The notes under the pieces were generated by a model. It saw nothing but the letters and a program-made list of their open reading frames with translations, had not been told where the DNA came from and did not search any database. From Symbiodinium sp. CCMP2592 (taxonomy: Eukaryota; Sar; Dinophyceae; Suessiales; Symbiodiniaceae): a DNA stretch of 64,000 bases. How positions within the stretch are numbered: position 1 is the stretch's first letter; each line of letters begins with the position of its first letter. Below are positions 155 through 56,207 of this stretch, in pieces. The stretch covers positions 1,548,902 to 1,612,901 of the forward strand of contig CAJNDT010001224.1 of the NCBI GenBank assembly GCA_905221615.1, in the 5' to 3' direction. The position numbers were made by a program, and so were the translations under genes.

Positions 155-3100
155 GTCGACCCGTCCAAGCTTACCGATGCTGACCTCGCCGATGGGTGCC
201 GAGCTTTTACAGTGGCTGTGTCTCAGGGCTTTGGGTTTTATGGGTGCCAGGGTTAGGGGCTGAGGGTTTCGGTGCTACAGGTTTCGGGCTTACGGTTCGT
301 TTTTAAGGCAAGTTAGGCTTACCTGTCAGGGCTGAAGACAGTGACATACGGTTTAGGGATTGGGGGGGGTGGGAGCGATGACAGGGTTGTGCAGGGTTCT
401 TTGGGTTTCAGCATCAGCCTCCGGGACGCGATCGGCAGGATCGGCCATAGGCACTGTGGTGGACCCCAAAAGTATGTAGAATTATAGCCTTTTATGGGTA
501 TTGGGCCATTATTAGGTGTGGTGGATTGATCCAGCGGCTCATGCACTGTATCAACACTTCGGAAGACTGCTTTGCTGCTACTTTGCCTTTCATGTCGTTG
601 TGGAGGTTGATGGAAGTATCAATGACGGCATCCATGGACTCCATGGGTTCAAAACTGCGCAGATGTCGACGGTGCTTGCATCCCGACCCTACTGAACTGC
701 CCAAGCTCGGAAGAACAGCTGCACTTGTTGGCAATCCCTTGCCTGAACATGGTTACTTTAAGTCCTAGCTGGCCTGGCCACGAAAGTAGTAATTATTCCT
801 TTCTCCCCACATAGCAGCCCTCACCGAAAACTTTTAATTCTTCACTTTTCAATACAACTTTTTTCCAACCCTCCTTGCCGCCCTCTAAATCGAGAGCTCT
901 GTGCCCCATGATTCAGATAGTCAGCCCTTGATCCCTAAGCCCTAAACCCTAAACTGGGATGTAGAGCAAAGGGCTGCTCGAGCATTCGGAAGACGCCGGA
1001 AAAGGGGCCTACGCCACCAACATCCTCATGAGAGTCGCAAGTTGCTTCTCCGTGAGCTTTGATTGGAGATAGCCTTGCAAATGGAGCTCTGGGTGCTGAA
1101 TCTCTGAGCCGAACAAGCATGCCAAATAAGAGCCGCACTTGCAAGTGTTTGAAGTTGTTGGCTTCAGGTTCTCTGCATCCGACATTTTCGGGTCGAAGAC
1201 GTCCATGAGTGTCCTGGCATCGAGATTCTGATGTCCGAAAGAAAGTGTCGAGCATTTTGCGTGCGGTTGTATAGGGGCCTGGCCCGCTATAAACACATCT
1301 TGAATTATTGCCACTCTCATCTGCCTGCTTTGCTGGCAACACCAGCTGGCAAAAAAAAGGTGTTCGTTGGCACGCCTCCGAAGTGCGCCCACACTTGGCT
1401 GAGTTGTCTAGAGTCGAAAGTGCGCTGGCTTCTGGCGTTTCATATTCGCGACCTGATGAAGGGTTCGTGCTTCTGCATAATGTTGTACATGTCAGGAATC
1501 GGGCTTCAGCTTTCTGAGTGTATAGGGACGGACCATCGTGGATCACGTTTGCGGGTTTCAATTTCAGGTTTCGGGCGGCTGGTCTTTCGGGGCTTTCACG
1601 TGTTAGTGTCGTTGGAGCAGGCGAAATTCTGAATCCTAGGGCTTGTATAGACACAGGCCCTGGGCCATGCACACTCAATACAGCCCAGACAGCTTAAATC
1701 AATTATCCCCGGACGTTGTCCCTTCGCCATATCTTGATGCATTTAATTACCCACTTTGGCACCTAAGCCTTGCAAGCACATACCCAAGGCGGCTACACCT
1801 ACGATGATCTTATCTGTCTGCCCGGGCACATCAACTTCGGTGTGCACGATGTGGCGCTGGGCACACGATTTTCAAAGAAGATTCTCGGCTGCTGTTGACT
1901 TCTGTTCCGGCCCATATCGTAGACCCGCTAAACTCCATAACCACCCTAAATTCACACCTGGTCTCATGAAGACGGTCTCTAGGGGTCCTGAGCTCTAGGG
2001 TTCAGTATATGCAGGGTTGAGTGATTGGGTTTCCGGGTTTAGGGTTCTTGCGGGTCAGGGGGTCTCGAGTTCTTGCAGGATCGCGCTGAGAACGCCCATC
2101 GTCTCTAGCCCGATGGACACGGTCACGGAGTCGAACATGGCCATTGCTATGGCACTGGAGCCTTGATCCAGTCAGGCACAGTGGGATTGCAATTCAAGGC
2201 AATTAGTACATCGGGATGTGCTTCTGGTTTCTATAAGCCCTGTAGTATATAATATAGGGATGTGCTTCTGGCATTTGAAAGCCCTTGACCCCTGATTTTG
2301 AGCAGACCCTTCATCAACCCTACGCACATCCCTGCAGGAGCCGCAGTCAGCCTTCTTAATGTTCAGCCTGCAGGGCCCGGGGTTTGTTTCGGGCTTAGGT
2401 TTAGGGTTCAAGGTTTAGGGTTTCGAGTTTCCCGTTTAGGTTTTTGAGTCTTGGTAAATGTTTCGCGTGTGTCGTTATTGTTTTCCATCACTAGATTACA
2501 GTTACTACAGTATGGTATTTTACAGTACGTCATTTCATATGACAACATATACTACACATTCTAGCATGTTATAGTATGTGATGGTATACCTTGGAGGTAC
2601 CAACTTTCACGATTACATTGCTAGCTAGATTGTACTCTACCCTTACCTTTGGTTAGTAGGGAATGGAAGAATGGTAGCTAATAGAAGTTATAATTATATA
2701 CCCCATTCCTCCATTCCTTCCTATGGGTAGCATGATGAGGGAGACCCCTTAAAGGGTACCCCTTCCGAACCCCACTTCTGGCTCTCTAAAAGGGACCTTA
2801 TTGAGAGGGTCTATATCCCCGAGGGTCCCCGTAATCCTAACTTCCCATACTAACCAAAGGTAAGTATCTTCCTTCCGAGGAAGGAGGCATCGGCGTCATC
2901 CACACCAACCTGCCAGTCGAGACCCAGGCTCCCATCCCGCTTGGGAGTTTCCGAAAATTAGGGCGGTACCTTCGGGTTCCTTTAAAGGGCTACTGTAAGG
3001 GTGCTATAAGGGTTCTATAAAGGGGGTTAGGGTTTATAGGGTTTAGAGTTTCCGAAAATTAGCGGTACTTTATTCTGGGGGCCTTATAGTAGCTATTTGG

Positions 3101-6100
3101 GGTGCTATATTAGGGTCCCCTATTTTCTGAAACTCCCTTTTAGTCCAGGTACGGATGTGGGGGTTTAGGGGGGGTTTAGGGATGAAACAGGGTTTAGGGG
3201 CTTAGGGGTTTGAGGTCTAGGAGTTTGGGGGTTGTACAGGTTCAGGGGCTTAGGGGTTTAGGGATTACGGTTTAGGGATTGAGGGTTTAGGGCTTAGGGA
3301 GATGTTTCTTCTGTACATTCTACGTGTCGCCTAAAGATAAGCTGTCTTTGGCCCGAAGCTGTCCACTCTTCACGATGTTCGATCTGCGCCTATGTTGATT
3401 CGTCTCGTTACGCATCGGTCTTCGCGAATATCGAAGGCCTAACCCAGAGACTCCAATATCCCGTAAAGAAGGAATATTCCTGAAGCCATATTAGGGATCC
3501 TACTATAACTTAAGGTGTATTCCATAACTAAGGGATATTGGAGTCTCTGGCAGTATGCGGTTGCACCACGTGTACCCCAAACCCTAAACCGCCGCGGGGC
3601 TGGTTGTGGCTTGGAAGATTGATCTCGCCCTGACCCTCAGCGTCAAGTGTAACATGCACTAAAGCCGACTAAAGCCATGTTCGATTTACTGCGGATCCTA
3701 TACTGGCCTGACATCGTAAACATCCTGAGGAGTTTAAAATCTAAGGTTGCCAGAGGCTCGAGGAGTCAATGTCGAACTGGCCTAGGTGCGGTTCGAGAAG
3801 AACTCCCTCTACCCTGCTTATACAACCTTATCATCGCCCTCATAGAAACTCTTCGGACCTTCAGTGAAGTCGTACCCCAAGATTCCAAGTGCCCAATAAT
3901 CATAATATACTCACCAAAATTCGAACCTACACCAGCTGCTGTCTTAAAGCCGAGTACCTAATTCTTGGGTCCTTTCTTATTCTTAAGCCCTAAACCCCAT
4001 AGATCCCTTATGGACCCCTTTAAAGGAACCCCTCTAGATCCCTTTAAAGGAGCCTCGCCCTCAGACCCTTGGGGGGTACTGTTTCACTACTGCCCGGAGT
4101 CTGGAGTCCCGGCAGCCTGAAACTCGAAGGCCCTGGCTCCGAAGCCCTAAACCCCAATTCTCCGAATTATTCACTACGGTTGATGATATAAATCCTGCAT
4201 TACCCATAATAAGGAATATACCATAATTCCCATAGTTTAGGGTCCTTAAGCTAGTGCAGGATTTATATCATCAACCGTAGGGATCTAAAGACTCATATAC
4301 TAAGGCATTTGGGCCCAAAGATCATACTATACAAGGGTTTTGGGCTATTTTGATCCCTAGGGATTCAAGGCATTCGGGATGTTTTGGGGTTAGGGTTTGA
4401 GGGCCTTACAGGGATGAGGGATGTTTTGACGTTGTTCAGACTTATTATTTTGGTGTTCAACCAGAAGGGACCATTAGCCCCAACTCTAAGGGTCATGCTC
4501 AAGATCTTTCAACATCCCAAGCAGGAGACTGGAGACTGCAAACCATGCAAATCTAACGTGTCGGTGCTGCGAAGTGTGGGCCTAGTTCGGGCTACGGTTT
4601 TCTGAGCCAGGTTTTGAGGCCTAGGATTCTGTATGTAGGCTTTAGGGGAACCCCAAATCCCTTCGAAACGCTGTTGAGCCCGGAGCCTGAACAAGACAGT
4701 TTAGTGGAGGCCGCCGAGGTTGCGCGGGTGAAGAAGTTCAAGGCACCCGTCTGTAGCAGGAGGTGAGGTGCGTAGTGGGTTAGTGGGTTTTGGTCAGCAG
4801 TATCTTCAGATCGCAGTAGCAAGAAGACATACCTTACTGTGCCTGTCTGTAGTGGCACCTTACTTAAATACAAGCCTCAGCCAGTGTTTCTCGACCTGAA
4901 TATGGTGATCTGCACGGATGGTTTATATGCACATGACAGAACTATTCATCCAGAGGTAGAGGAAGGCTGTTGAGTCGTTTAGCTTGAAATGCAAGACGGG
5001 CATCTCATGGCATCTCAGCTCAGATCCGAGCATGCGTCTTTTCGCTTTTAGAGTCAATTGTTGTTCGGTGGCTTCGTACAATTTATCGAACCCAAGTGTA
5101 TGTGTGCCCAGTGGTTTGCTGAACGACCCAATTAGCCGGAGAACATAATTCAAGAATGCTGTGATGATTTGGTCAATTGCTCGATCCCTAGGGCTTGACA
5201 GAGCGCCACACTTTCCCTGAACCCTAAACCTCTAAACCCTAACCCCTAAACCCTAAAACCCTAGACCCCTAAACCCAGAGCCTATTAATCATAGACACTT
5301 GCACCGCTGTCAGTTTGAGGCGGGTTTCATTCTGGAGCCTCGCTGTGTTCCGCCCACGATGACGCTGGAAGAGTTGGACAAGCTCAAGAGTAGCTTGGAG
5401 TTATGGGTAAGTACAAGTAGGGTCAGAAGTCCCCTCATATGGGTTATAAATATAGTTACCCTACTTATAGTAGTAGCTCGGAGTTTTGAGGCCAGGGTTG
5501 GGGCTTACAATTGGGTTGAAGGGAGTAGGGTAGAGCTTAAGTGCATGTGGACTATTATACCAATTCGGGCTTTGGCGCTTTTCTGATGTAGCTTATCTTC
5601 GGCAGCCGCGAGATTGTCGGAAATTGCTATCCACGACTTGAGAAACCATGCTTCCTACAGATGCATGCTCTCGATGACTTTGGATAGATACATGTAATTA
5701 GTCTCCATTGTAGTTCCTTTTTTGGTTTAACCAATTATGGATTAAGGATCCTGTAAGGTACCCCCAAAAAGGAACTACAATGGAGACTATAGGTAAGTTC
5801 CAGGCAGATTATGGAACCCACATGCCTTCCCGAATGCTTCCTGCACATGGAGCAGGAGCTTTCGGATGCTTTCTGATGTTGGGTAGTGTAGACCAGTGGT
5901 TACCCAGAGGCCCCAGAGTAGTTCCTTTTTGGGGTTACCTTATAGGGTTCTATATATGAACCTCAAAAAGGAACTACTTTGGGGCCTTTGGGTCATAAAC
6001 CCTCGCAGGGAGAGGATGTTTGTCCATCAGGTGTCCGCATTCGGTGGTTTTTGCCGTCTGTCCTTTCGTGTCCCCACAGTTTGCTAGAGCGAGGGAAGTC

Positions 6101-7707
6101 CTTTCGGTGAGTTGAATTTCAGCTACGTGCAATATATAGAAGCCTAAATACTTACCAAGACTATCCTGTGGGGTTCCTCATTATAACTCTGTCAGATCAC
6201 AACCCTCAAACTATTCATTATAAAGGCCCCTAGATTCAGCATCAGGAGTGGTCATGGTAACGCAGCCTCAGAACTTGCTGACGGAGAAGAAGAGCCGGTC
6301 CAGATGAAACCCCCAAACCCCTAAATCCCTAAACCCTAATTTAGGGTTTAGGGTTTATGGTTTAGGGCTAAACCCCAAACCCCAAACCCCTAAATCCCTA
6401 AACCCTAAACCCCAAACCCCTAAACCCTAAACCCCTTGAGCCCTAAAGCGTAAACCCCTGAGCCTTAGGCACTCTCGGCTTCACGGGCTTCCCGGTGACG
6501 GAGAGCGGGCAGATGGGAGCCAAGCTTCTGGGTCTTGCAGCCTGCCTCTTATTGGTCCCGGGGCCCCTTCGGGGTGTAAGGTGGAGTTTTGATTTTGAGT
6601 TCTGGGCTCCGTAAGTTTAGAGTTCTGTAGAATTTTTTTGTGTCGTAAGACTTGGACTTGGAAGTGTTGTTGTTTGTGTGAGGCTTCGCTCTTCAAGATG
6701 TTCTGGCTGCTCTGTTGGTCGGTTTTGTTGCGTGCCTGTTCTGAGTTGAAGTCGCACGGTGCACAGCGAATCAGGACAGCATTCGGTGTTGTCACCAGTA
6801 GTGAGAGTTCCTGCAGCAACAGGTCACGAAGCGCGACACGGATTTTGTCCAGGACCGGCTGGCTGGTTGCTGGGAAAAAGCAAGGTTTCGAGTCGAGTGT
6901 CCGCAGCCCACTGTGACCTATTCCTGCCACTTTTTCCATAATTAGGATTCACGGCTCAGGGTTTAGGGGTTATAAGGTTTATCTTAGGCTTCAGGCTTGT
7001 ATCCACATCGGACTTCTTGAGTTCACACGTACTAGGGCTATGTGACTTCTTGGGCTCGGGGCGCCTGCCACCCGAGACCCTAGATCCTTGATATATAAGA
7101 CTAAGAGCCCTTATAAAACAATCGGACACCTCTCAAACCATTAGCTACAAGAAAAATCAACCCTAAAACTAACGCAACACCCTGACCAAAACACTGAAGC
7201 ACCGAACGAACCTTAGGACCATCTGACACCTGAGCAGCCTGAAGCCCAAACAAAAACACGGGACCTCACCAATAAACGAACAGCCCAAGGCGCATAACCC
7301 ATAACCCAAAAAGCTAACCAGCTTACACCGCGAAACACAACTGCGAACCCTTAAGCCCGTACAAACCCTATTTGCAGGGGGGGACTTAGTAAATATGGTA
7401 TAAGTAGGGTTATCATTGGGGTAACTCCATTTAGGGTACTTATAACTCTACTTATAACCTACTTACTAAGTCCCCTGCCCCTCCAAGTAGACCACGCAGA
7501 AACAATACTAAACCCTGAACCCTAAACCCTGGTGTTCTTGTTAACCTTCGGGACAGGGAGAAAAGAGGGTTAAACAAAAAAAAAAAAAAAACCTAAACCG
7601 CCAACCGCCGCGAGGACCGTCAGACCCGGCTCAGTCAGATTATGACCCCGGCGGCCGACTTGGATGCTTGGCCTGGAGCCAGTTTCGGGGTTTTAGGTTC
7701 GGCGTGT

Positions 7708-7802
<95 letters not shown>

Positions 7803-10380
7803 ATTAATGAAGTTCCAGGATTTTGGGGGAATTGGGGCTGAAGGGTAGTTTGTAGAGGGCTTCAAATGAGATTTAGAGGGCTGTGATTCGGGCGATGCAC
7901 ACGCGCAAGTGTGTGCGTGCGTGTCTGTGCTTGAGAGCTATTTTTTGCTTTGTGTTGTACTGTTGAGTTGGGTCTAGTACAAAGCTTTGACACGTCAGCC
8001 TTGTTCTCTTCATCTCTTGATCGTTTGGGACCTCGTGGGGAACATAGCTGTCAACGGTCTACGATTCAACACCCCCAAGCCGGAACCCCAACGCCTAACA
8101 GTCTTGAACCCAACTCCGGGTTATGTGTCTGCAACGGTTAGTTTCATTCATTATCGGTCATTCAGCAACGGTTTCAACCATCAGACGGGCAGCAAATTCT
8201 GCATCCCTCTCGCTGATGGAGACATTTTCTTTTGTGAAACGGTCATGGTTCTCATAGTTTAGCGTACATGCGCAACAGCAGAACTTTGTCATCACCAGGA
8301 GTATGTTTGAGACTCAACCGCATGTGCGCACTCTGCCCTCAAGGTATAATAAACCTCGAAGATACCCTAGCGACTAGAACCACGAAGACAGCGACGCCGC
8401 AAATCAAGAATCACGGAATCCCTGAACCTACCCATAGGCCCCAAAGTAGTTCCCTTTTTGGGATTACCTTATAGGAGTCTTTCTACGAGCCCCCAAAAGG
8501 AACTACTTTGGGGCCGTAGGGTAACGGCAAACCCAACCGAATCCGATGACAACTCAGGTCACTAAGCTCGAAGGCTGCGACCTCATCGAGGCTATGAGTC
8601 GTCCATTGGGATCAGGGTTTAGGGATTCCGAATGTTTTTTGAGTTTAGGGCTTAAAGTTTAGGGCAAGGTTTTCGAATGGTTTTAACTAATGTCCTCTGT
8701 GTGTTGGGGGTTTACCGGGTTGCACATCGATTTTATGATAAGTTGCTTAGACGATCGGCTTTGCAGTTCTGGAGGACCTACATGCACCTACACGCACGGT
8801 TTTTGCTACCACAATCGGGATAATGCATTGTAGTCCACACCAGGCGCAAATCTCACCTGAACAGACCTCCTCATCTGCAGAGGAGAAGGGTCTTAACTTC
8901 GGGCTCTGGGGGTTCGGGTTTAGGGTTTTGGGGTTGAGGTTGTAGGGTTTAGGGCGTAGGGTTAAGCATGCAGGGTTAACTTGCTAAGCCAGGTAAAGAC
9001 CAGGGCTCTGAAGCCGAACCTTTGAACGGCAGCTCACTCTCCATCTGTAGGCCAACGAGACGCTGCAGAAGTCGAAGAAAGGAAAGCAGCTGGGATGAAG
9101 TAGAGAACCCTCCTTAAACCCTAAACCCTAATCCCTAAACCCTAAACCCTGAACCTAAACCCTGAACCCTAAACCTGAACCCTGAACCCGGTCGGCCGGA
9201 ACCCGGTCGTTTGTCAGCTCTCGGGAGTTTTTCTGGGTTGACGGTCTAGAGTCTAGAGGTTAAGGTTGTTTTTGTTGGGCTGCTTTGGGAATTTATAGTT
9301 TTTTACGGTAGCATATTAAGGATGTCAGTTGCGTACGGCCCCCACTCAGTAATAGTTGAATAATTTTCATAATATAGATATATTAGGACAACAAAAAAAG
9401 CCCTATTATAGACTCTTACTGCAGGGGGCAGTACCTAAGATGTCAGGTTAAAGGGCTTCAGCTCTCAACTGGTGGGACTCTTCCAATCTATTGATCAGGA
9501 TCTGCATAGGACCTAGCAACTAGGGCTAACTAGGGAAGGGCACTTACCCTAAACCGCTAAACCCTACAAACCCTAAACCCCTAAGACCCTGAAACCCTAA
9601 ACCCCCAAACCCCTTGAGCCCTCACCTTCGTTACTACGTCCCATCCCCGAGCAGCTTAAGGGTTAAGGGGCTTAGACTTCACGGGTTGAGGGCTTAGGGG
9701 TTTAGGGTTTCCTGATGAGCAAGCTAGTTGTAGTCCTCCCGGAAGCATATAAAGTTCGAAGTAAACTTACTTGTCTTGGATGGGAAATTGTTGACGTACA
9801 GTTTCGGGTTCCCTTGTTGTTTCCTGCTGATATGCTTTGGGGGGGATGGGGGGGCTACCCGAAACCTGTGAAGGCAGATTGAGAGCTTTCCACTCTCGAG
9901 CCGAGGCTCCCGATTGTCACTAAGAGTGGCCTTCTGGTTGCCCTGGTTGCAAGATGCTTGCCTGAAGGGTTTATGGCTTTATGTCTGTGTGCGTGTGTGG
10001 GTTTGAGTGTGAGTGAGTGTGGTGTGGGGTTGTTTAGTACTTAGTAGCCCCTAAACCCCTAAACCCCTACACCGGGCTTTGAGGCAAGGGTTCAGGGTTG
10101 AGCACAACAGGATCCTGAAAGAACAAGCCCGTCCCCCGTAAACTTCAGAACCACGAAACACGAAACCCTTGCGCCCGGGATGTTTAGGGGAGCTAAGGGC
10201 TTCGGGGTGCTTGATAATCATGTAGCCTAATCTTCAAGCGGTGCTTTTGAGGCTCGGATAAAAGCTTTTGGGAGACAACTTTCCAAGCCCAATGATGTTT
10301 TTTGGGCACAGGCATTCTATCTACCTATCTAACTATATGTGGTATGTGTATGTATGTATGTATGTATGTATGTGCATATG

Positions 10381-10414
<34 letters not shown>

Positions 10415-11735
10415 CACCCATACATATCTACCAACCTATCTACCTACCTACGTACCTACCGACATACATACATACAATCAGCCAGGATTCGTCCATCCAT
10501 TTCATATCCACAAGAACTACAATACAATGGCATTAACTTTCACCCAAGCGGCTAGTCAATGCGTACTTTGGACCCTCAGGCTAGGACGTTTAGGGCCGCA
10601 TGAATGCTCTTGTTTTGGCTGTAGAGGTGTTCTCTTTTTTGAGCTACGAGCTTTAGCCCGCACAGTGGACAGGAACCGTTTTTTCTCTCTCGCTTCGATC
10701 AGATCTCCCAATCCGGGCCGTGAGTTTCATCTCAACTTCTGACTCACGAGCCCCACCACATGTGCACACGCCTTTTTTCACCCAAGTCCCAAATACAGAG
10801 CCCGCCCAAGCCCACAGATCCCGACCCAACATCTCCACGCATCGAAAGTGGATGGACTGGATGCACGGCCCTATCGGTTTGGGTTTCCGTGGGCGTCAAG
10901 GAACCGATATCAAGAAGAACGTGGACTTCCCCAACGCCACGAAGCATCCGGTGAACAAGGCCCGTGAGTGACCCCAATCCTAGGTCGTGGTAGTCAGCTC
11001 CCGTGGGCACAGTGCTGTGCTTCTAGGAGTTAAGGGGACGGATTGTCGATCCTGGGCATTTTCGATACCAGCTGCTCATTCCACCAAGTTTTCAGCCCGG
11101 AGTTTGTTTGGTTTAATCTTCGAGCCTGGCGGTCTGACCTGGCGTTCTTGGCTTAGCAAGCCATCCTCGGCCCCCGTTCGACATGATGACATATGTGCAC
11201 GGGCACAAGTAACTGTACATGCGTACACGTACAAAGATTCCTGAAAGCATGTGTGTAGGCCTGGAATGCATATGTATATGTACATGTATGTATGTGTATG
11301 CATATGTATATGAATATGAATATGTATATGTGTGTATGAATGTATGTGTGTATGTATGTGTATGTCTGTAACTGTTTATGTATGTATGTATTTGCGCATG
11401 CATGCATGTATGTACCTATCTTTCCAGCTATGTATGGACATGTGTATGATTGCCTGTATGTATGTACGCACGTACATATGTACTTACACATCTCTGTGTT
11501 TATGTCAGTGTATGCATGCATGCACTTGAAGTGTATGATTGAATGTAATTGTGCGTGGCTGCATGCATGTATAGTTGAATGTATGTACATACGCAAGTAT
11601 GTATATCTGTACCTCTGCATATATGTATGCATACATCCCTTTCCGTGGATGTGTGTGTATCCATGTGCATGTGCTCATGTAGATATGTACCGGCCTAGGT
11701 ATGTAACTTGTATATGTACGTGCACCTGTATATAT

Positions 11736-11766
<31 letters not shown>

Positions 11767-14700: not shown

Positions 14701-14976
14701 TACAGGGGATATCTCCTCGAGGTTCAAGAAGCACAGTACCACGGTTACCCTGATCATTTTCCCTGGGCCATCCTGCAGAAACCGTCAAATCCAACCCTAA
14801 GCCGTCTACCCGACCTGTCCTAGAGATTGCTCCCTGAAGCCCACACCGGAAAGCCCTAAACCCCGAAGCCTAGATACCGAATAGCCACCAGCTGCCGAGA
14901 GCCCTGAATCGATAGATCCTCAACCCTGAATCCAAAAGTCTCAAGCTCAGAGCCTGGCCTATACTATTATATGGCA

Positions 14977-15011
<35 letters not shown>

Positions 15012-21000: not shown

Positions 21001-21199
21001 GGCTACGCAACGAAAACTCCTCTTCCGCCCGGATATTCGGCCCCGCGGAATATGTTGATTGTCACCGCGTTTAATAGAGTGACCGCAACATTAGATAGGT
21101 AGAGAGTTGGACCGAAAACAAAGATGGATTGAGAGGCAGATAGGTATACAGAGAGAAAGATAAAGAGACAACGAGAGAGAGAGAGAGAGAGACACACAC

Positions 21200-21230
<31 letters not shown>

Positions 21231-24600: not shown

Positions 24601-24944
24601 ATACCATTTAGGGTTTCATTATGGTATATGGGTATAAGGCCCGTACTTTTCAGGGTTCAGGTAATGTAGGCACCATTATGTGCGAGAGCGCACAGCAACA
24701 TCAGCTTCAGTTAGATCCCACATTGAAGAAGCTGTGTGCACATGGGTTACAAGGACGCACCCGGGACCCTAAATCCTCAAATCCGACAAAGAAGAAATCT
24801 GAAGACTAATTACGAATTGCTGAGGTGCAGTCTGCTTGTTCTCTGAGTTACACGTGCCTATCGTACGTAGCAGAATTTCAACCTCCAAGACATTCGGTTT
24901 TGCTCCCAAAACTCAATTCTACTGGATGCCATTGGAGGATAGAT

Positions 24945-31567: not shown

Positions 31568-31639
31568 ATGACGGGCACCAATGGAGCCAGCAAGGACCGC
31601 AGTCGATCTCCGCGGAAGGAGCCCAAGGGACGAAAGCGA
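31568..31639 (+). CDS. IMPDH: IMPDH copy B exon 1: start codon and basic RS-rich N-terminus
   Basis: The ATG at 31568 opens 24 codons ending in phase 0 at a GT donor (gtccttgg). The next exon starts GTCGAC at 32346 in the same phase. The first three intron bases (GTC) recur at the start of the next exon, as in the other introns here. The peptide contains [17 protein letters not shown], an RS/basic stretch that could be a nuclear signal or a disordered tail; that role is inference. Total protein length with this exon (521) fits the family. It is less certain than the other exons because N-terminal tails are not conserved and copy A's equivalent is off the window. Confidence 0.75.
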
Positions 31640-42500: not shown

Positions 42501-42546
<46 letters not shown>

Positions 42547-48500: not shown

Positions 48501-49386
48501 TACATCATAATATGAAGCCCTATATAATATATGGTTGAAGAGGTCACATCGTCAAGGCGCTGAGCTTGGGTGCCGGCGCTGCCATGTGCGGTCACTCGGC
48601 CGAGAGGAGCTTCCAACTGTTCTTGGTCTCGAGGTGCAGCGCTTACTGTGGGGGCCGTAATAGTTACCCATACTATTTTCGGAGTTCCTTATTATGACTA
48701 TAGTATAACGGGCGCCAAAACCCTATTCTATTATATATTAGTAGGGTTGTGCTTTGATGGTCTAGTTTGTGCGATGTTGTTTTCTGAAGTGCAAGCCTCA
48801 GGATTTTCGTCGAAGTGGCAGGGTTTTGAGTTCAGGGCTCACGAACCCTCGACAACCTCGAGCCGAGCCTGCAGCTCATACGTATACTAGGTAGGGCTTT
48901 GGGACATTTTACATATTTCGCTTATTGGGCTTAAGAGGATCTTATATATGCTAATATTTTTCAAAAGCTTCAAAAGCCCCACCTAGTATATGATTGCCAC
49001 ATGCAGTTGCCACTCTGATGCCCATGTCCCGAAGCCAATACCTAGGAACCCTGAACTCTAAAATCTGCAACACCGAGACCACAGGTCAGAAATAGTCATT
49101 AGACTTGAGCTGAAAGCTTGAAGCATCGGCGGACTTATACCCACAGGATAACAGCATTATGGGGGCGAAAATCATTACCCATACTATTTAGGGGGAGTCC
49201 TTATTATACTTATAGGATTATAGGCCCCGAAGCCTTATTCTAATTAGTAAAGCCCCTTTAGGAGCCTGTATCCCGAATCCCTGAGCCTTATACCCCGAAA
49301 CCCCAGGACTCCAGGACCTGAAGTCCCAAGTCCTGAAACCAATCCCGAGTAAATCCCCAAACTCCGAAGCTTCAAACGGAGAACCC

Positions 49387-49417
<31 letters not shown>

Positions 49418-52400
49418 CTGATCCCTAAACCCTAAACCACAAACAACAACCTAAAACTTGGTCCTTCAAATTCAGCCCAGGCAGCTTGCTAGCCGGAACT
49501 TCAGAGACTCCTGGCGAGTGCCTCGATGTAAGCGATCAGCTGTGGGGTTTAGGGATGGAGGGTGAGTAAAGGTTGAGGGCTCAGGTGCAAGGGTTTAGGG
49601 CCTCTATGTATAAATAGCAAACGTATACACACACATGTTAGTATGTGTGTATATATATATATATATGTACACACATGCTGCGTCGGTGCACATACTCATA
49701 CAGTTTCTGTTTGTATGTACGTGTGTCTATGTATGTATGCATTTGTATTTATGTGTATATACATATAGAAGCGCTGTCTGACATGCATACATGCAGACAT
49801 GCAGGCATACAGACATACAGACATACACCAAAGTCACTCTATCCGTCTGTCCGTCAATGCATGCATGCATGCATGCATACTTACAGTACATACACGCATA
49901 CATCCACACATACACCCGCATACAGACATACACACATACATGCATGCATGCATGCATACACACATACACGCATACATGCATAAACGCACAACTGCATACA
50001 AAGACATGTAAAATAGTTCTCATATCGTTCGTTCTATTTCAGAAGCAGAGCAACTGCAGCAGCAGCAGGAGTAGGAGTGGGCGTAGGGGTAAGTAGGAGT
50101 CGGAGCAGGGGGAAGCAGTAGTAGCAGTAGTAGTCGTCGTCGTCGTAAGTAGCAGCTCGCCCTGCCTGACCAAGGTACTTCTACTCAGAGGACGGCAAAA
50201 GGCTGAAGCGATATCGCGGCATGGGCTCTATCGACGCCATGTGCCCTGGCCGGAGGTTGTCATGAGAACACCGAGCCTCATGAGACTGCGAACGTGAAGC
50301 CCTGAACGGTTTAGGTTTAGGGTTTCGCCGAACCGATTACTGTAATCTCAGCCCTGCGAAATTGAGGCCGGACGACCCCTAAGACACAAGCCTTAAAGCC
50401 TTCAATCAATGTCATGTCCACGGCTTTGCTCATCAAGTCCAACTTTCAACTTCGTGGCAGTAGAAGCATGAAGCTTGGTAGGTTTGGAGTTGTGAGGTGA
50501 GTCAACGAAGCTGAGGGTGGCTAGGGCATCGTGTCATGTAGGGGTCTTAACAATTAGAATAGGGTTTGGGGTATATTATACGATAACTATAGTAAGGAGC
50601 CCCTAAACCCTATTGTAATTATTAAGGCCCTTACATTCTGCTTTTGGACTGTAGTTCTACTCTAATCATTTAGATAGGCCCCTATAGTAGATTCATTAGA
50701 GGACCCGCGCTGCCCAGAGACAGCTTCGGGCTGGGTTGTTGTGTGGCACTGGCTCCATAGTCGGAGCTGATAGACCACCTATAGTCTCCATTGTAGTTCC
50801 TTGTTTGGTATAACCATTTTTTATATTAAGGATCCTACAAGATAAACCCCAAAAGCAACTACAACGGAGACTATAGGTAGTTTTAGCCACTCAGCCTCGC
50901 GTGTATGACTCATGCATTATAACCCTGCAGCTGAACTTCCACAACAAGCTGTTTGCCCAACTTCATGACATTGCACCCGTCCACATCGCCCAATCCCAAG
51001 CACCGTCTTAGTTGGCGAGTAATTCCCATAGGAGAATGACCTTCGGATCCCATACTGCGCAAGTCGGCCACAGACCACAATCAGACAATAAGACAGCATA
51101 TATGGGCCCTAACTATTAAATATATGGGCTTGGCGTATAGTCACAGTGTTCCACAACCATCGTGCGGAGCCCTACGGAATAACATGGGCAGTCATTGACG
51201 CCTTTGAGGAAGAAGGGCAGCGATGACCGCTACTTCGGCACCGCCGCAGCGATCAAGGTTGCGCAGGGCGTATCCGGAACAGTGCAGGACTCCTCAATAC
51301 GGGTTCCTTTAGGGTTCCTTTGAGTTACTAAGGGTTCCTTTCAAGGTTCCTTTAAGTTATTAAGCATTCCTTTCAAGGTTCCTTTAAGTTACTAAGGGTT
51401 CCTTTCAAGGTTCCTTTAAGGGCTCCTTTAACGGATAGTCTGGTAGCCCCGTCTTCGGGCAGCACTTGCAGTTATGGGTCTATGGCTTCTGGGACCTAGA
51501 GTAGAGCCTTATTCCCTTTTTTATGGTTCAGGTTCCCTTATAAGCCCCTAAAAACCAAAAAGGGCACCCTTTTTGTTCCTAGGTTACTCTTGGGTCTATG
51601 GCTTGGGGTCTATATGGTTTACAGTAGTGAACCGCGGATAGCCTGGGTTCAAGGTGCTCAACTCACATAAACAGGAGCTGCCGGAGGTTGGGATAATGTA
51701 GGGGCCTTGGTAAGGGTTTAGGGTTTAGGATTTGGGGTTTAGGGGTTCAGGGTTTGGTAATTTAGGGTATAGGGTTAATTGCCAATACTATTTTGGGGGT
51801 TCCTTCCTATAATAATGGTAGTACATACACTAAAACCCTCTTACAATTATGCCGGCCCTTGTGTTATGTCATCTTGATCTTCCCCTTTGGCGTCAACGCT
51901 GCCAGCGACGTACGGTTTAGCATGTAAGTGGCAGTCAACGTTGATCAATCGCTACAGTAAGCTTGTCAATTTTGATACTAAGGTCTGAGCTTCTACGGCG
52001 GCATTGCAGCTAATTAACACATAACCGGAAAGAATTTTCTGTCTTTATTCAGAAGCAGAGATGTACTAGCACGAAGATTCCACAGACCAGCCGGTCATCT
52101 AGAGAGACACTCAAACGGGTGGGCCATTTATCCTATTCTCCCAGCCTAAGTTTTTGAAGCTTCTGCCCCCAGGGTTTAGGGTTTAGGGTCACTAGAGCTT
52201 GCAGGACAAGGGCAGCATCCACAAGTACATCCCATACCTCACGCCGCTCGGAGAATCTTCTGGTGTAGTTCAGTTTCGGCCGCTCACAGTCACCTGCTAC
52301 GGCTCCAGGAACTTTTCGATTTCAGTTTTGAAGGGCCTACTGTAGCTTAGTTAGGACTGTGGCGAGACCTTATCGTGCATAGGGCATTGGGCTTGGGATA

Positions 52401-55400
52401 GAGACTGAGTGTTCATGTCAGAGGCCTAAAGTAAAAGCCAGAAAGTTGGAATATCATTATCGTAACCCCTTTAAGGTAAATTATAGGGCATCCTACCATT
52501 AATCCATGTTCCAACTTTCTGAAGTTCCCTGTAAGTATTTGAGCTTTTCGTTTCGGGTGCAGTGCATGCTCACTGCTACAGCTGAGAGCTGTCGCTGAGA
52601 GCTTTCTCAATTTCCTTGCCGCGCCACAGTCCTCAAGTCGTTGTAGGAAGTGCATGTTCTTCAAGTAGAATCGTTATGATAAGTATCCCTAATTCCAAGA
52701 AGTCTCCGGCTTCTTGCTTCGAACGGCAAGCCGCGGCAAACCACTTCCACGCCCGAAGCCTAGACGCTCGCTCCCAGCTCTGCTCTGACGTACGAAGCAC
52801 CTGCAAGCTGCGGCCAGGCAGGGCCTCAAGCACGGAATGCAGGATATCGGTGCACAGAGTGTTGACCAACTCCAGTCCATGCTGCAGGACTGAGCTTTCC
52901 TTGGGTCGACCCCCTTCCCATGATAAACCTCCTCGGCTTTTGCGGATGGGGTCCTCCGTGGCTAATATAGGGGCCCCAAAAATCAGAGTAGAGTTGGTGG
53001 GCCCATTGCTATAAGTATAACAAATAACCACCGGAATCGTATTGGTACTTAGTTAGACCCCTAAAGTATGTTTGAGTTCGCTGTTTTTTCTTGTTCAGTT
53101 TTTCCAGCTCTTGGCCTCGGCAGCACATGCCAGCATGGCAAATCCCGTGCCCCTTTCTCCTCCACCCTGGCGCTGCTGCTCTCTCGTAGCTTGGTGTAGT
53201 TAAGAATGACAAGCTTAGAAGTTTGATCTAGTTGATGAGGCTTGTTGCATGCAACCTAGGTTTCTAAAGGTATTGACACACTTCAGCAAACATATCCTTG
53301 ACTTTGACGATACTTCGTCAAGATACCGATGACTGAGAAAACTTCGCTTGCATCACGGGAGTTGCTCCGCTGGTTTGGAGACGAGCCGTTGCTTCCAAAT
53401 CATTTCCACCCGACTTCCTGGAAGGTGGAGCCCGAATGCAAGAAGAATTTAGGGTTTTGGGGTTTGGGGTTTAGGTTAGGGTCTTAGGGTGTCTTGAATC
53501 CGAGTTCAAGAAGAGTCAGCATACTTCCCGAGGCATCAGTCACAGAGCACGCCACCTCACTCTGTTCCTTCTCATCTAAACATCAACCCGAAATGCTAAA
53601 GAATCTTGAGTCCGAGAGCCCTTCTGAAAACAAAAACCATTCAAAATCAACACTCAAATTCCTCTCCCCCACACTATGCCCCACAGTTCGGAACAATGGG
53701 TGTTGTTGTGAACAAACACCTCTTCCAATTATGAAGGACCGCTGCTAAACACCCCAATTTTAAACCAAAGCCTAGACCCTAAACCCTACACCCTCTACCC
53801 CTATGCCTAAACCCCAAGCCCCAAAGTATAGACACCCTGATAGAACCTTCCAAAGGAACCCTCAAAAGAACCCGACACCCAAGACCTTAGTCCCGATAGC
53901 CCTATCGCCCTAAACCCTATAACCCCATAATATGGCAACGCCACGTAAGTTCCTTAACAAGAGCCCTTTAAAAGGAACCTTATTCCCAAAACCCTAAACC
54001 CTTTTGAAGGAACCCGTAAAGAAGCCCCTGAACTATACAATGTTAACCCTACATCATGTAACCCTAAATCCCTACGTATAGGACCTCTATTCCCAAATGG
54101 CTTATAAATTCCGAATGACCCTTATAGAAGGCCTGCGTTTGGAGTGAGCAGCCCTTTTAAGGGTTCAAGCCGTATTCAAGGTATATCCTTAATTTTTATG
54201 GAACCCTTGAAGGAACACCAAATCCTAAAACCCTTAGCCCTTCAGGGAACGCTTAAATTAAACGAACCCAACAACCCAAATCCTACAGCCCTATTATAAG
54301 CCCTAAACGCCAAGGCATCCCAGAAACAAATCCTATAACCCTGAAGCCTATGGAACCCTAGAAGGAATCCCGAAACCCTAAACCTTTGAAGGTAATCCCG
54401 AAGCACGAAAACCTTAAAGCCTACAACCCTGCGGCCCTGTATTCCTATACCCTAAACCCGGTGCAACAACCTGGAGAAGAAGCCCCCCTAAACCCTAAAC
54501 CCTAAACCCTAAACCCTAAACCCTAAAATTTAGAGGAACCCTTAATCAAAGGAGCCCCAAAGCCTCTCCTATGACCTAAATCCTATAACCCTCCAACCTG
54601 ACACCCTAAACCCTTTGCAGACAACGCGTAAAGGAATCCCATAAACCTGAATCCTATAACCCCAACAACCCGCCTAAACCCTCAACCCTTTGCAGAAAAC
54701 CCTTAAAAGAACCCCAAAGCCCTATAACTCCTATGACTATTGAATCCTATACCCTAGAGACCCTTTAGAGGAACCCAAAAAAGAACCCCAAAGCCCTATG
54801 TATGACTCCTATGACTATTGAATCCTATAATTACCCTAAACCCTTTAGAGGAACCCCAAAGCCCCAAAAAGAAGCACCCTAAACTCTTCAGAGGAACCCT
54901 TAGAGGAACTTCAAAGCCTCAAAATAGCCCAAACGCCTCATATAGTATGGTTTTTGGGCCCAAAAGGCTTAAAATATGAGTCCTTAGAGCATAAGGGTTA
55001 AAGGAGCCCCAAAGCTTCAAAAAGGAGGGTCAACTTCGCTTCGAGCTCCGATCCGCCGCTGCACAGCGAGAGGGAGGCGTCCACGGCCCCCTGGCGCCGA
55101 AATGGGGAGGGGGGTTTAGGGTATAGGGTTTAGGGTTTAGGGAAGGGGGGGGTATCTTATGGATCTTTTAACAAGTTAGCGTGTCTTGGGGTTTCGGGGA
55201 GGGGGCGAGGGGTTTCCTGTGATATCTGATGGGTTTTTGTTAGGGTGTCTTGGCATTTCGGGGAGGGGGGAGGGATTTCTTGCGGTATCTGATGGGGTGT
55301 TCTAAGGGTGTCTCGGTGTTTCTTAGGGTTTCTGTGTTTTTTCTTTTGGTTTCTTCGTGGTTCTCTGACTTCTTAGGGTTGGTTTGGATTTCTTGAAATT

Positions 55401-56207
55401 CCTGAGCATTTCCCATAGGTTAGGTGCTAAGAGTAGTTTAGGGCGAGATGGAGGGGCTTTCTTAGGGTTTCTTATTAAAGTTTTGGGGTTTAGTGTTTTT
55501 TGGTGTTTCTAAGGATTGCTTAGGTGTCTAGGGTTCAGAGATTCTTAATAGTTTTTCCCGGTTTCTTAAGGTTTGTTTGAGGGTTCTTTCTGTTTCAAGT
55601 TTAGCCGTCTAGGGTTGAGAGGTTAGAGTTTACGGTTTAGGATTTTACGGTTTTGGGGTTTAGAGTTCAAGTCGGAGTTTGAGAGGATTTTAGGTGCCTT
55701 TGAGCTAGTAGGGCGAAAACTGAATCTCCCACAATAGCCGAGGAGAGTACTGTTAAAAGGTTCAGGGGGTACAGGGTTTCCGGAGGTGTCAGTTGCGGTC
55801 CGAGGGCCGGGAAGTTTCGGGTTGCGTTCTTTGTAGCCAAAATCGGCTCGGCTTCCCCACACTGGGCTACGGGCATTGTGCTCTCTAACTCTTGAGATCA
55901 TGGAGGGTCTTCGAAATTCACGGTTATCCCTCCTAACTGACAGGACCAGAGCACCCCAAGTCGTTGCCGTGATCTTAGATTATGGTGTATCATAGATTAG
56001 CATGTTTTAGCATAGCATAGTATGATATAGTATAATCTTGTATATTATAGTATATGGCTCCTTTGTCTTATGTTGGAAGTTCCAGCCTTCGGGACATTTC
56101 GGGTTGGAAATGCGCTCGGCCCTATACTTTAGACCGCATGCCCGAGACCGCCCATTTGCATACTTCAAGGCTTGCACAGCTTCGAGCGCAAGCTGTTCGA
56201 CAGCTGA
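31568..56207 (+). CDS. IMPDH: IMP dehydrogenase, copy B (29 exons, complete)
   Basis: Second, complete tandem copy of the same enzyme. Exons: 31568-31639, 32346-32385, 33956-34046, 35177-35255, 35675-35722, 36791-36823, 37539-37611, 38232-38299, 39357-39386, 40150-40185, 41133-41165, 42228-42262, 42785-42831, 43549-43607, 44004-44060, 44586-44644, 45280-45331, 45910-45959, 46645-46702, 47151-47195, 48001-48064, 48543-48590, 49481-49517, 50175-50240, 51209-51287, 52206-52243, 52818-52887, 55025-55085, 56170-56207. Total 1566 nt, 521 residues. Landmarks: basic Arg/Ser-rich N-terminus (1-24); CBS pair about residues 120-245; catalytic Cys337 in GSICTTQ; Asp370 in ADGG; flap about 406-427; Arg434-Tyr435 in DDRYFG, matching the catalytic Arg-Tyr pair known in the family; C-terminus FDS with no peroxisomal signal. 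About 33 differences from copy A over 497 residues, nearly all conservative and none in the active site. Exon 25 corresponds to two exons of copy A. Confidence 0.95.
31826..31934. repeat. Hairpin element, family H6
   Basis: Arms ccagaaagttggaatatg ... catattccaactttctgg with distinct outer flanks (aagggaact / cttctactgtta). Lies in the first intron of copy B. Confidence 0.92.
32600..32835. repeat. H7-like composite
   Basis: Long imperfect fold-back: tataagggatctataagg ... ccttatagatcccttata, followed by an H7-like right end (acttataaaggcccc). Lies in the second intron of copy B. Confidence 0.65.
33304..33410. repeat. Hairpin element, family H11
   Basis: Arms cccagagggtccatatact ... agtgtgtatggacccttaggg. 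Confidence 0.85.
33566..33673. repeat. Hairpin element, family H8
   Basis: Arms atgggtggttgacaaaatg ... ttttgagaactatccacat. Confidence 0.88.
33830..33947. repeat. Hairpin element, family H10, abutting a splice acceptor
   Basis: Arms ccaagggtaaaaggacgg ... ccctccttttcccctt. The pyrimidine-rich right arm is followed 9 bp later by the acceptor of the exon at 33956 (gatctcag|GTGG). Confidence 0.9.
34520..34853. repeat. Nested hairpin composite: H3 shell around H5 and H11
   Basis: An H3 left arm (acccataggctccattgtag, 34520-34540) pairs with an H3 right arm (aactactctggagcctatgg) ending at 34853. Between them lie an H5 element (about 34606-34702, gtttccgaaaat ... ggaaactccc) and an H11 element (34712-34801). 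A stretch of about 40 bp at the left H3/H5 junction is repeated in tandem. Order of events: H3 first, then insertions. Confidence 0.8.
34973..35093. repeat. Hairpin element, family H1
   Basis: Arms cttggaaggggcagggg ... cccctgcccctccaagt. Almost the same sequence as 12773-12892 in the other gene copy but in a different intron, which argues for recent mobility. Confidence 0.92.
35277..35341. repeat. (GGT)n microsatellite
   Basis: About 21 GGT units, beginning about 20 bp after the donor at 35256. Gives false poly-Val and poly-His frames. Confidence 0.97.
36281..36386. repeat. Hairpin element, family H8
   Basis: Arms atgagtggttgtcaaaatca ... aattttgacaaccacccag. Confidence 0.9.
37199..37334. 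repeat. Hairpin element, family H1
   Basis: Arms acttggaggatcacggg ... cccacgatccttcaagt with a longer, diverged centre. Confidence 0.88.
38193..38231 (+). other. Conserved intron 3' end (copy B)
   Basis: Partner of 6430-6468. It contains ttgagccctaaagcgtaa and ends ccttag before the exon at 38232. Confidence 0.8.
38381..38480. repeat. Hairpin element, family H13
   Basis: Arms agaagggccccccaccctgt ... acagggtgggggccccttct. Confidence 0.9.
39204..39327. repeat. Hairpin element, family H1
   Basis: Arms actcaaaggatcattgg ... cccatgatcctccaagt. Ends 30 bp upstream of the exon at 39357. Confidence 0.88.
40824..40930. repeat. Hairpin element, family H6
   Basis: Same arms and same asymmetric flanks as 31826-31934 (agagaact / cttttacttta), in the same orientation. 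Confidence 0.92.
40983..41093. repeat. Hairpin element, family H12
   Basis: Imperfect arms ccagtagtacccttattccc ... tattcttaggttactggg. Related to 51490-51595. Confidence 0.7.
41176..41415. repeat. Longest telomere-like array (TTTAGGG type)
   Basis: About 240 bp of TTTAGGG and TTTAGGGG units, with one short inverted junction near 41352 (gtttaaaccctagggttt). Begins about 10 bp after the donor at 41166. Confidence 0.92.
41419..41527. repeat. Hairpin element, family H4
   Basis: Arms acctatagtctccatgg ... caatggagactaaaggt, directly after the telomere-like array at 41176-41415. Confidence 0.88.
42336..42665. repeat. (ACT)n/(ACG)n and (TCC)n microsatellites
   Basis: Imperfect act/acg triplets to about 42560 and a pure tcc run at 42627-42664. 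Produces artefact poly-Thr, poly-Val and poly-Pro frames. Confidence 0.96.
42859..42965. repeat. Hairpin element, family H9
   Basis: Same arms as 4174-4280. Starts about 28 bp after the donor at 42832. Confidence 0.92.
43086..43190. repeat. Hairpin element, family H5
   Basis: Arms gggagcttccgaaaatag ... gaattttggaaactccc, somewhat decayed. Confidence 0.88.
43800..43975. repeat. H7-like composite
   Basis: Contains H7 pieces (gaggcctca, ttcctta, ttaaggcccctata, attattaaggtcct) plus a ccctttcaaggaaccc block. Ends about 28 bp before the exon at 44004. Confidence 0.6.
45997..46107. repeat. Hairpin element, single copy (H15)
   Basis: Arms taatgtaggaacctgattaa ... ttaatcaggttcctacatta are perfect over more than 20 bp. 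No second copy was seen in the window. Confidence 0.88.
46645..46702 (+). CDS. IMPDH: IMPDH copy B catalytic-loop exon
   Basis: Same 58-nt exon as 14254-14311 and identical in protein, including Cys337 of GSICTTQ. Flanked by a GT intron upstream (45960, gtgcctcgg) and a GC intron downstream (gcctgtctgg). Confidence 0.95.
48327..48436. repeat. Hairpin element, family H2
   Basis: Arms cccagagcctccaaaacc ... ggttttggagtctctggg. Preceded by a C-rich tract. Confidence 0.9.
48471..48530. repeat. Truncated H2 element (left half only)
   Basis: Carries the left arm (acccagagagcccaatacc) and ttaattaagg block but no right arm. The sequence then runs into the acceptor of the exon at 48543 within 12 bp. 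A full H2 copy lies just upstream. Confidence 0.75.
48649..48743. repeat. Hairpin element, family H7
   Basis: Left end gtgggggccgtaatagtt, then the family centre (actattttcggagttcctta, aaaccctattcta). Right end decayed. Confidence 0.75.
48884..48989. repeat. Hairpin element, single copy (H16)
   Basis: Arms tatactaggtagggcttt ... aaaagccccacctagtata. Confidence 0.85.
49158..49259. repeat. Hairpin element, family H7
   Basis: Arms tatgggggcgaaaatcatta ... taattagtaaagcccctt around gggggagtccttattat. Confidence 0.8.
49620..49995. repeat. CATA/CATG simple sequence
   Basis: Degenerate acatacatgcatg units in the intron before the flap exon of copy B. Confidence 0.93.
50537..50635. repeat. Hairpin element, family H7
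   Basis: Arms atgtaggggtcttaacaatt ... aattattaaggcccttacat. Confidence 0.85.
50777..50879. repeat. Hairpin element, family H4
   Basis: Arms acctatagtctccattgtag ... ctacaacggagactataggt. Confidence 0.92.
51209..51287 (+). CDS. IMPDH: IMPDH copy B exon 25, uninterrupted equivalent of two copy A exons
   Basis: This 79-nt exon encodes [16 protein letters not shown] then [10 protein letters not shown] without a break and includes the catalytic Arg-Tyr pair. Copy A encodes the same peptide in 49-nt and 30-nt exons around a 712-bp intron. The second-longest exon of copy B. Confidence 0.95.
51325..51420. repeat. Tandem repeat, 32-bp unit, three copies
   Basis: Unit contains ttactaagggttcctttcaa then ggttcctttaag. 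It begins about 35 bp after the donor at 51288. Confidence 0.9.
51490..51595. repeat. Hairpin element, family H12
   Basis: Arms gacctagagtagagccttat ... gttcctaggttactcttgggtc, sharing attccctttt with 40983-41093. Confidence 0.7.
51695..51864. repeat. H7 element interrupted by a telomere-like tract
   Basis: Arms taatgtaggggccttggtaa ... attatgccggcccttgt. Between the left arm and the usual centre (aattgccaatactatttt) lies about 65 bp of TTTAGGG-like sequence (51713-51776) that other copies lack. Confidence 0.8.
52429..52531. repeat. Hairpin element, family H6
   Basis: Inverted orientation: gtaaaagccagaaagttgg ... ccaactttctgaagttccct. Confidence 0.92.
52964..53070. repeat. Hairpin element, family H7
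   Basis: Arms taataggggccccaaaaatc ... ggtacttagttagacccct. Confidence 0.75.
53750..55020. repeat. Degenerate CCCTAAA-like region
   Basis: About 1.27 kb of sequence dominated by variants of ccctaaaccc, aaaccctttagaggaaccc and aatcctataaccc. It contains one clean six-unit CCCTAAA run (54487-54527) and a local duplication (tgactcctatgactattgaa near 54725 and 54810). Lies in the longest copy B intron. Confidence 0.8.
55140..55325. repeat. Tandem repeat, about 70-bp unit, two to three copies
   Basis: Unit includes gtgtcttggggtttcgggga and tatctgatgggt. Follows the donor at 55086 by about 55 bp. Confidence 0.85.

What the first reader, a model, noticed from the sequence alone, without database searches (positions are those of the whole stretch)
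195..56169. GC and GA donors outnumber GT, and intron start bases recur after the acceptor
By my reading of 56 introns, 31 start GC, 12 GA, 11 GT and 2 are ambiguous. Every acceptor is AG|G. The first intron bases are usually repeated at the start of the next exon (GC..AG|GC, GA..AG|GA, GTG..AG|GTG). Such short direct repeats at both ends are what insertion with target-site duplication would leave. Known dinoflagellate genes also use GC and GA donors; the near absence of the GTAAGT consensus and this bias are striking.
Basis: partly seen in the sequence, partly recalled or inferred. Interest (0 to 1): 0.85.

Follow-up and report, generated by a model that had tools for sequence, protein, structure and literature searches.

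The report
Dinoflagellate introns with unusual start signals
The window holds two neighbouring copies of a common enzyme gene from a coral-alga-type dinoflagellate, cut by dozens of introns that mostly begin with GC or GA instead of GT, a known habit of these algae; the extra point is that these introns share a second signal a few bases further in, which may be part of how the cell finds them.

Summary
The window carries two tandem IMP dehydrogenase genes of a Symbiodinium-type dinoflagellate. With a ribonucleotide-reductase R2 gene on the same contig and one intron reaching upstream there are 86 introns: GC 48, GA 21, GT 17, GG 0; AG|G 86 of 86; 17 can be placed as GT-AG without changing the protein. 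The repeat is real but small: mean 3.07 bp against 2.68 in re-paired introns (p 0.0004). The excess sits at base +2 (47 against 28), perhaps +3/+4, and none beyond +4. That fits a decayed 4-bp target-site duplication, as published for S. microadriaticum introners, but the inverted ends of such elements are not detectable. Donor classes and AG|G are already published for dinoflagellates. What I did not find in the papers I could read is a second donor block, +5 C (58/86), +8 G (54/86), +9 G (48/86), seen in both genes and predictive from R2 to IMPDH, less so the other way. U1/U6 could not be examined because the genome search did not complete.

The parts
1..24450 (+). IMPDH copy A: window part of a 31-exon gene (534 aa in all); the first exon lies 310 bases upstream of the window and the first intron ends at 154
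   Evidence: Spliced DP without splice signals, 0 gaps, 97.6% identical to P0002; Pfam PF00478 fragments
31568..56204 (+). IMPDH copy B: complete, 30 exons, 29 introns, 531 aa, ATG to TGA
   Evidence: Spliced DP, 0 gaps, 98.1% identical to P0005; Pfam PF00478 fragments
196..24415 (+). 29 complete introns of copy A (coordinates listed in the full report), all G-not-G donor and AG|G acceptor
31619..56169 (+). 29 introns of copy B (coordinates listed in the full report), all G-not-G donor and AG|G acceptor
19312..20023 (+). Intron A25, 712 bp, present in copy A only: AAG|gtggcacc...ccggag|GTCGC
51209..51287 (+). Exon of copy B that is unbroken where copy A has intron A25 (empty site AAGGTTGC)
6853..7614 (+). 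Example of a long boundary repeat: intron A9, CCAG|gaccg...gcgag|GACCG (7 bases)
42832..42840 (+). Example of the donor block: intron B14 begins GTTGCCTGG, with +5 C, +8 G, +9 G
   Evidence: statistics

Best explanation
These are dinoflagellate-type spliceosomal introns of two tandem IMPDH genes. Shown by sequence: the 3' site is AG|G in every intron examined; the 5' site is G followed by C, A or T, never G; and a second donor block follows at +5..+9 (C, often T, any, G, G). Inferred: the spliceosome of this alga needs G at +1 and not-G at +2 and gains donor specificity from the +5..+9 block and the exon-side AG, so +2 is free to be whatever the insertion site supplied. Inferred: the short repeats are worn remains of about 4-bp target-site duplications left when intron-making transposons (introners) inserted at AG|GHNN, the duplicated GHNN becoming the 5' splice site while the element supplied the block from +5 on and the AG of the 3' site.
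For: AG|G 86 of 86 and donors GC 48, GA 21, GT 17, GG 0 in two unrelated gene families. Direct-match excess confined to +2..+4 (103 against 74.6, p 0.0002), none at +5..+12. Donor block +5C 58/86, +8G 54/86, +9G 48/86; +5C with +8G in 47% of donors against 8% of 818 exonic and 6% of 13,956 intronic decoys; trained on R2, +5..+9 alone puts 53 of 58 IMPDH donors in the better half of nearby positions. The exon side avoids GG as the donor side does: AG|GG 1 of 86 although AGG is followed by G in 15 of 62 coding cases, as expected if exon and donor are copies of one target. Copies A and B keep +5C and +8G while only 3 of 28 intron pairs have any blastn hit. Intron A25 is present in one copy only. 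Introners of S. microadriaticum with 4-bp TSDs are in print (PMC9860276, passages).
Against: The match excess is mostly one base (+2); +3 and +4 together p 0.055. 39 of 86 introns do not match even at +2. No terminal inverted repeats: longest runs 2.83 on average against 2.96 re-paired, maximum 5; complementarity of the ends not above re-paired introns (p 0.27). IMPDH-trained scores do not improve R2 donors overall (13 better, 13 worse), and +5C is weak in R2 (10 of 24). All introns come from one contig and two gene families. U1 and U6 were not seen.
Confidence: 0.5

Rival explanations
1. The repeats are only shared splice-site consensus: introns sit at proto-splice sites (AG|G), so both ends look alike, and no duplication took place.
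For: Matches at +1 and at exon -1 and -2 equal expectation exactly; mean repeat 2.68 of the observed 3.07 bp is reached by re-paired introns.
Against: +2 matches in 47 of 86 against 28.0 (p 0.0002), and mean repeat p 0.0004; window alone with sites shuffled, p 0.003.
Confidence: 0.25
2. The match between donor +2 and exon +2 is kept by function: the machinery compares or tolerates both ends, and the repeat is part of recognition.
For: Donor +2 agrees between copies A and B at 20 of 28 sites (10.7 expected) and +3 at 13 (7.1), while the intron interiors have turned over.
Against: 39 of 86 introns do not match at +2; at one paired site (A2/B3) donor and exon bases are mismatched in opposite ways, GT with GC and GC with GT; slower change next to the exon could give the same.
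Confidence: 0.1
3. The +5..+9 donor block is only a relic of transposon ends and is not read by the splicing machinery.
For: CTNGG at +5..+9 is the reverse complement of the weak CCNAG at the 3' end (-5 C 35, -4 C 30 of 86), and it begins just after a 4-bp duplication would end.
Against: The block persists in both IMPDH copies although 25 of 28 intron pairs have no blastn hit; agreement at +5 and +8 equals that expected from a consensus at equilibrium (18 against 17.7, 15 against 13.9), which a neutral relic would not hold. The 3' counterpart is much weaker.
Confidence: 0.3
4. The reader placed the junctions wrongly and the true introns are GT-AG.
For: 17 of 86 introns do have a protein-preserving GT-AG placement.
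Against: 69 of 86 have none; the models are gapless over full length against homologues, some of them from transcript collections by their source labels.
Confidence: 0.02

Closest known systems
Symbiodiniaceae spliceosomal introns (S. minutum reviewed in PMC4083563, section 25 read whole; intron table in PMC7789003, passages)
   Same: GC and GA donors beside GT, G after the AG acceptor, tens of introns per gene. The table column that I match to S. microadriaticum by its intron length has GT 26% and GC|GA 73.95%; here 20% and 80%.
   Different: The review calls the 5' signal weak; here a block at +5..+9 is found. I saw no mention of it in the passages read.
Introners of Symbiodinium microadriaticum (PMC9860276, passages)
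   Same: 4-bp duplication from which the 5' splice site is taken, 3' splice site carried by the element: agrees with an excess limited to +2..+4 and an invariant AG.
   Different: Those introners have terminal inverted repeats and are recent family members; the introns here show neither.
Identically repeated intron boundaries in a dinoflagellate tandem gene array (Mendez et al. 2015; title in a reference list; not held; content recalled: 2-9 bp repeats)
   Same: Same kind of boundary repeat, also in a tandem array.
   Different: Cannot be compared in detail; here the part of the repeat that exceeds the AG|G rule was measured and is small.
Amoebophrya non-canonical introns and introner elements (PMC7789003, passages)
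   Same: Direct repeats of 3-5 nt at intron ends; most introns not GT-AG.
   Different: Those have no clear dinucleotide rule and 8-20 nt inverted repeats in a fraction; here G-not-G / AG|G without exception in 86 introns and no such repeats.

Membership tests
Dinoflagellate (Symbiodiniaceae) spliceosomal introns | GC and GA donors beside GT | tested here: met
   GC 48, GA 21, GT 17 of 86
Dinoflagellate (Symbiodiniaceae) spliceosomal introns | AG acceptor followed by G | tested here: met
   86 of 86
Dinoflagellate (Symbiodiniaceae) spliceosomal introns | Five spliceosomal snRNAs | not tested
   33 genome-search requests unanswered, one of them a protein query; Rfam found none in the 323,754 bases searched, too little to expect one
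Introner elements (DNA-transposon type) | Target-site duplication of 3-9 bp | tested here: inconclusive
   Excess at +2..+4 p 0.0002, but mostly +2; +3 and +4 together p 0.055
Introner elements (DNA-transposon type) | Terminal inverted repeats | tested here: not met
   No excess over re-paired introns, longest run 5; only a weak CTNGG/CCNAG agreement of the two consensus sequences
Introner elements (DNA-transposon type) | Many near-identical copies at different positions | tested here: inconclusive
   Intron ends compared with the 323 kb held: 67 of 172 ends had other hits; the 20 printed hits reaching an intron end all concern one intron (A0), at 70-86% identity; whole genome not searched
Canonical GT-AG introns with GTRAGT donor | GT donor with A or G at +3, G at +5 | tested here: not met
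   GTAAGT or GTGAGT 0 of 86; +5 is C in 58, G in 17
Amoebophrya-type non-canonical introns | No clear rule for the first two and last two intron bases; inverted repeats of 8-20 nt in a fraction | tested here: not met
   Strict G-not-G / AG|G; longest terminal inverted run 5

The most novel reading that the evidence does not exclude
In this Symbiodinium the 5' splice site has been re-coded: much of the donor information sits at +5..+9 (C-Y-N-G-G), derived from the ends of introner transposons, while +2 is free except for G, and U1 and/or U6 carry compensating changes (for example CCNAG in the segment that faces +5..+9). That would explain how a genome can splice tens of introns per gene with GC, GA and GT donors alike.
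Probability: 0.3. Interest if true: 0.75.

Novelty: new member of a known kind. Interest (0 to 1): 0.42.

Why it matters
[quoted passage not shown] A donor block at +5..+9 gives that question a concrete handle (which snRNA position faces +5?), could improve gene prediction, where the pipelines that I saw described add GC and/or GA donors (PMC10666404 and PMC8045281, passages), and would tie the splice-site code to the transposons that made the introns.

Tried and rejected
Intron ends pairing with each other (euglenid-like idea, recalled): complementarity of the 5' end against the 3' end shows no overall within-intron excess on 82 introns. Branch-point or 3'-tract motif: 6- and 7-mers enriched in the last 70 nt were mostly CCCTAAA-like; no clear branch site. 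MITE-like palindromes as the introns themselves: from the coordinates the few that I compared by eye lie inside introns and not at their ends; not computed for every element. More tandem copies: none in the 123,501 bases around and including the window. snRNA genes: none in 323,754 bases. Third gene (N-terminal methyltransferase; Pfam, tblastn): dropped, because the homologue search with a chimeric query listed animal proteins. Pfam on L017-L021 gave only two weak DUF hits. The minus strand, window 60003-64000, L001-L011, L027 and L028 were not scanned with Pfam.

Rows moved or chosen: no intron was dropped from the 86. Where the DP junction was not AG|G (7 of 58) it was moved to an AG|G placement, keeping the protein in 6 and changing one residue in B10. 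B5 has two AG|G placements; the one with the longer repeat was used. Searches used 82 introns (R2 from residue 36); one search used 86; the donor test used 58 IMPDH and 27 R2 introns.

Full report
What the sequence is. The window lies at contig C1224:1548902-1612901 of a 1.098-Gb genome. Plus-strand frames with stops read as X give Pfam hits to IMP dehydrogenase (PF00478) in two sets, best stretches at about 1.8-18 kb and 35-47 kb; blastn of the two halves shows collinear exon-sized blocks of about 76-93% identity. An exon-concatenated query found close homologues: S. microadriaticum (P0001 and P0004, each with a longest contig of 1,953,040 bases, so probably a tandem pair there too), S. natans (P0003), and P0002 (source lgn, contig 1771 bases) and P0005 (jgi, mmetsp). 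A spliced dynamic-programming alignment with no splice signal built in gave copy B complete (30 exons, 31568-56204, 531 aa, no gaps) and copy A to the window's left edge; with upstream DNA copy A is complete too (31 exons, 534 aa, no gaps). Copy A is 97.6% identical to P0002, copy B 98.1% to P0005, and the two are 92.5% identical. The organism is a Symbiodinium or close relative; I did not name it further.

Junctions. In the AG|G register the window has 58 complete introns, 199-2137 bp, median 726. Copy A, first to last intron base: 196-1167, 1209-1788, 1880-2078, 2158-2879, 2928-4709, 4743-5319, 5390-6468, 6537-6822, 6853-7614, 7663-8557, 8591-9050, 9086-9905, 9953-10900, 10960-12151, 12209-12675, 12735-13227, 13280-13506, 13557-14253, 14312-15211, 15257-15890, 15955-16701, 16750-17683, 17721-18173, 18240-19262, 19312-20023, 20054-21476, 21515-22239, 22310-23304, 23366-24415. 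Copy B: 31619-32345, 32387-32870, 32912-33955, 34047-35176, 35256-35674, 35723-36790, 36824-37538, 37609-38231, 38300-39356, 39387-40149, 40198-41132, 41166-42227, 42263-42784, 42832-43548, 43608-44003, 44061-44585, 44645-45279, 45332-45909, 45960-46644, 46703-47150, 47196-48000, 48065-48542, 48591-49480, 49518-50174, 50241-51208, 51288-52204, 52243-52817, 52888-55024, 55086-56169 (the seven shifted ones, A8, A17, A19, B6, B10, B12 and B20, are worked out by hand from the DP places and the junction letters). Donors GC 29, GT 15, GA 14; acceptor AG|G 58 of 58. A further intron of copy A begins upstream and ends at window 154.

A second gene. To see whether the pattern belongs to one gene family only, I fetched 200 kb downstream. 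Together: 86 introns at 57 distinct sites.

Donor and acceptor statistics on 86. Donor GC 48, GA 21, GT 17, GG 0 (R2 alone GC 18, GA 7, GT 2). First two bases after the acceptor: GT 30, GC 29, GA 26, GG 1; in the spliced IMPDH coding sequence AGG is followed by G in 15 of 62 cases, so one GG in 86 has P 1.3e-9. Placements that keep the protein and read GT-AG: 17 of 86. GTAAGT or GTGAGT: 0. Position -3 of the acceptor is T in 5 of 86.

The direct repeat. Pairing each donor with other introns' acceptors (5000 re-pairings that avoid the same homologous site) gives a mean repeat of 2.68 bp; observed 3.07, p 0.0004. Observed and expected matches: +2 47 / 28.0, +3 26 / 22.2, +4 30 / 24.4, +5 27 / 23.9, +6 15 / 20.6, +7 18 / 20.7; sum +2..+4 103 / 74.6 (p 0.0002), +3..+4 56 / 46.5 (p 0.055), +5..+12 173 / 177.0 (p 0.66). 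With the window's 28 paired sites only, shuffling A and B together, the mean is 2.98 against 2.57, p 0.003, and the exon-side part shows no excess (p 0.58).

The downstream donor block. Besides the invariant G, the strongest donor position is +5: A 1, C 58, G 17, T 10 (p 2.5e-18), then +8 G 54 (8e-15), +9 G 48 (1e-10) and +6 T 39 (5e-4). In the window all 15 GT donors have +5 C and 13 of 15 have +8 G. In R2 alone (24 introns) +8 G 15 (p 5e-5), +9 G 13 (p 0.001), +5 C 10 (p 0.03), so +5 is weaker there. Decoys: +5C with +8G in 47% of donors, 8% of 818 exonic and 6% of 13,956 intronic G-not-G sites. Trained on R2 and tested on IMPDH, +5..+9 alone puts 53 of 58 donors in the better half of positions within 300 nt, and adding the downstream bases improves 45 and worsens 10 (p 2e-7). 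Trained on IMPDH and tested on R2 it is 22 of 27 in the better half, but 13 improved and 13 worsened overall (p 0.17). The block is shared by the two genes and stronger in IMPDH.

Selection or relic. Of 28 paired introns of copies A and B, 3 have a blastn hit at E 1e-3. At +6, +7 and +10..+20 the copies agree at 6-10 of 28 sites, close to composition. Donor +2 agrees at 20 (10.7 expected) and +3 at 13 (7.1): a memory of the individual site. +5 agrees at 18 (17.7 expected) and +8 at 15 (13.9): no site memory, as for a consensus held by selection while everything around it turned over. I take this as moderate evidence that the block is read by the machinery (inference). The consensus CTNGG at +5..+9 is the reverse complement of the weak CCNAG at the 3' end (-5 C 35, -4 C 30 of 86), and it begins just where a 4-bp duplication would end; that suggests an origin in transposon ends (inference), although terminal inverted runs are no longer than in re-paired introns.

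Intron gain or loss. Copy A has intron A25 (19312-20023) where copy B's exon is unbroken (51209-51287). Junctions AAG|GTGGCACC / CCGGAG|GTCGC and empty site AAGGTTGC. GTGG, GTCG and GTTG differ only in the third base, which would fit a 4-bp duplication with later changes; whether it is a gain in A or a loss in B is not decided.

Literature. PMC4083563 section 25 (read whole; passages): GC and GA donors in S. [quoted passage not shown] PMC7789003 (passages): table with GT 0.26 and GC|GA 73.95% in the column that I match to S. microadriaticum by intron length; Amoebophrya introners, U1 not found there; [quoted passage not shown] PMC11453091 (passages): review, GC/GA 25-74% in Symbiodiniaceae. 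PMC9860276 (passages): introners of S. microadriaticum with 4-bp TSDs and TIRs. PMC4201569 (passages): MWG|gy donors, sag|GY acceptors and the open question quoted above. PMC11782384 (passages): direct repeats near splice sites in all 213 introns that it examined, S. microadriaticum among the sources. PMC10666404, PMC8045281 and PMC12787238 (passages) did not describe a +5..+9 block in what I saw. Mendez 2015 is not held; Shoguchi 2013 and Roy 2023 were seen only as references; what I say of Mendez is recalled. My searches cover openly licensed papers only, so the block may be in print elsewhere.

Verdict.

Noticed in passing
window 34980-35085, 22795-22895, 24943-25053, 4174-4280, 13612-13768 and others: MITE-like palindromic elements of about 80-160 bp with exact inverted arms of 16-29 bp; several belong to families repeated within the window, for example 7371-7494 and 34974-35101 at 91%.
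   Followed up: partly
G000 contig C1 (places listed): ACTTACCT and AGGTAAGT occur as pairs exactly 85 bases apart on opposite strands at least five times among the listed places, probably one such palindromic family.
   Followed up: no
window, throughout: Telomere-like heptamers scattered everywhere: CCCTAAA 150 and TTTAGGG 134 times in 64 kb.
   Followed up: no
L008-L012 (C1224:1652759-1696409 and beyond): Ribonucleotide reductase R2 with an N-terminal thioredoxin domain in one protein, also in many dinoflagellate homologues (PF00085 with PF00268); one intron is 21,465 bp long.
   Followed up: partly
P0001 (S. microadriaticum IMPDH record): The deposited protein holds the stretch [19 protein letters not shown] twice in a row, probably a gene-model error or a duplicated exon.
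   Followed up: no
L022-L026: Strong FNIP-repeat (E 1e-101) and LRR_5 matches in plus-strand frames read with stops as X.
   Followed up: no
acceptors of the 86 introns: T is depleted at -3 (5 of 86) while G is common there (25 of 86), unlike the usual YAG acceptor; no strong polypyrimidine tract or branch site stood out.
   Followed up: partly
window 19312-20023 and 51209-51287: One intron is present in IMPDH copy A and absent from copy B.
   Followed up: partly
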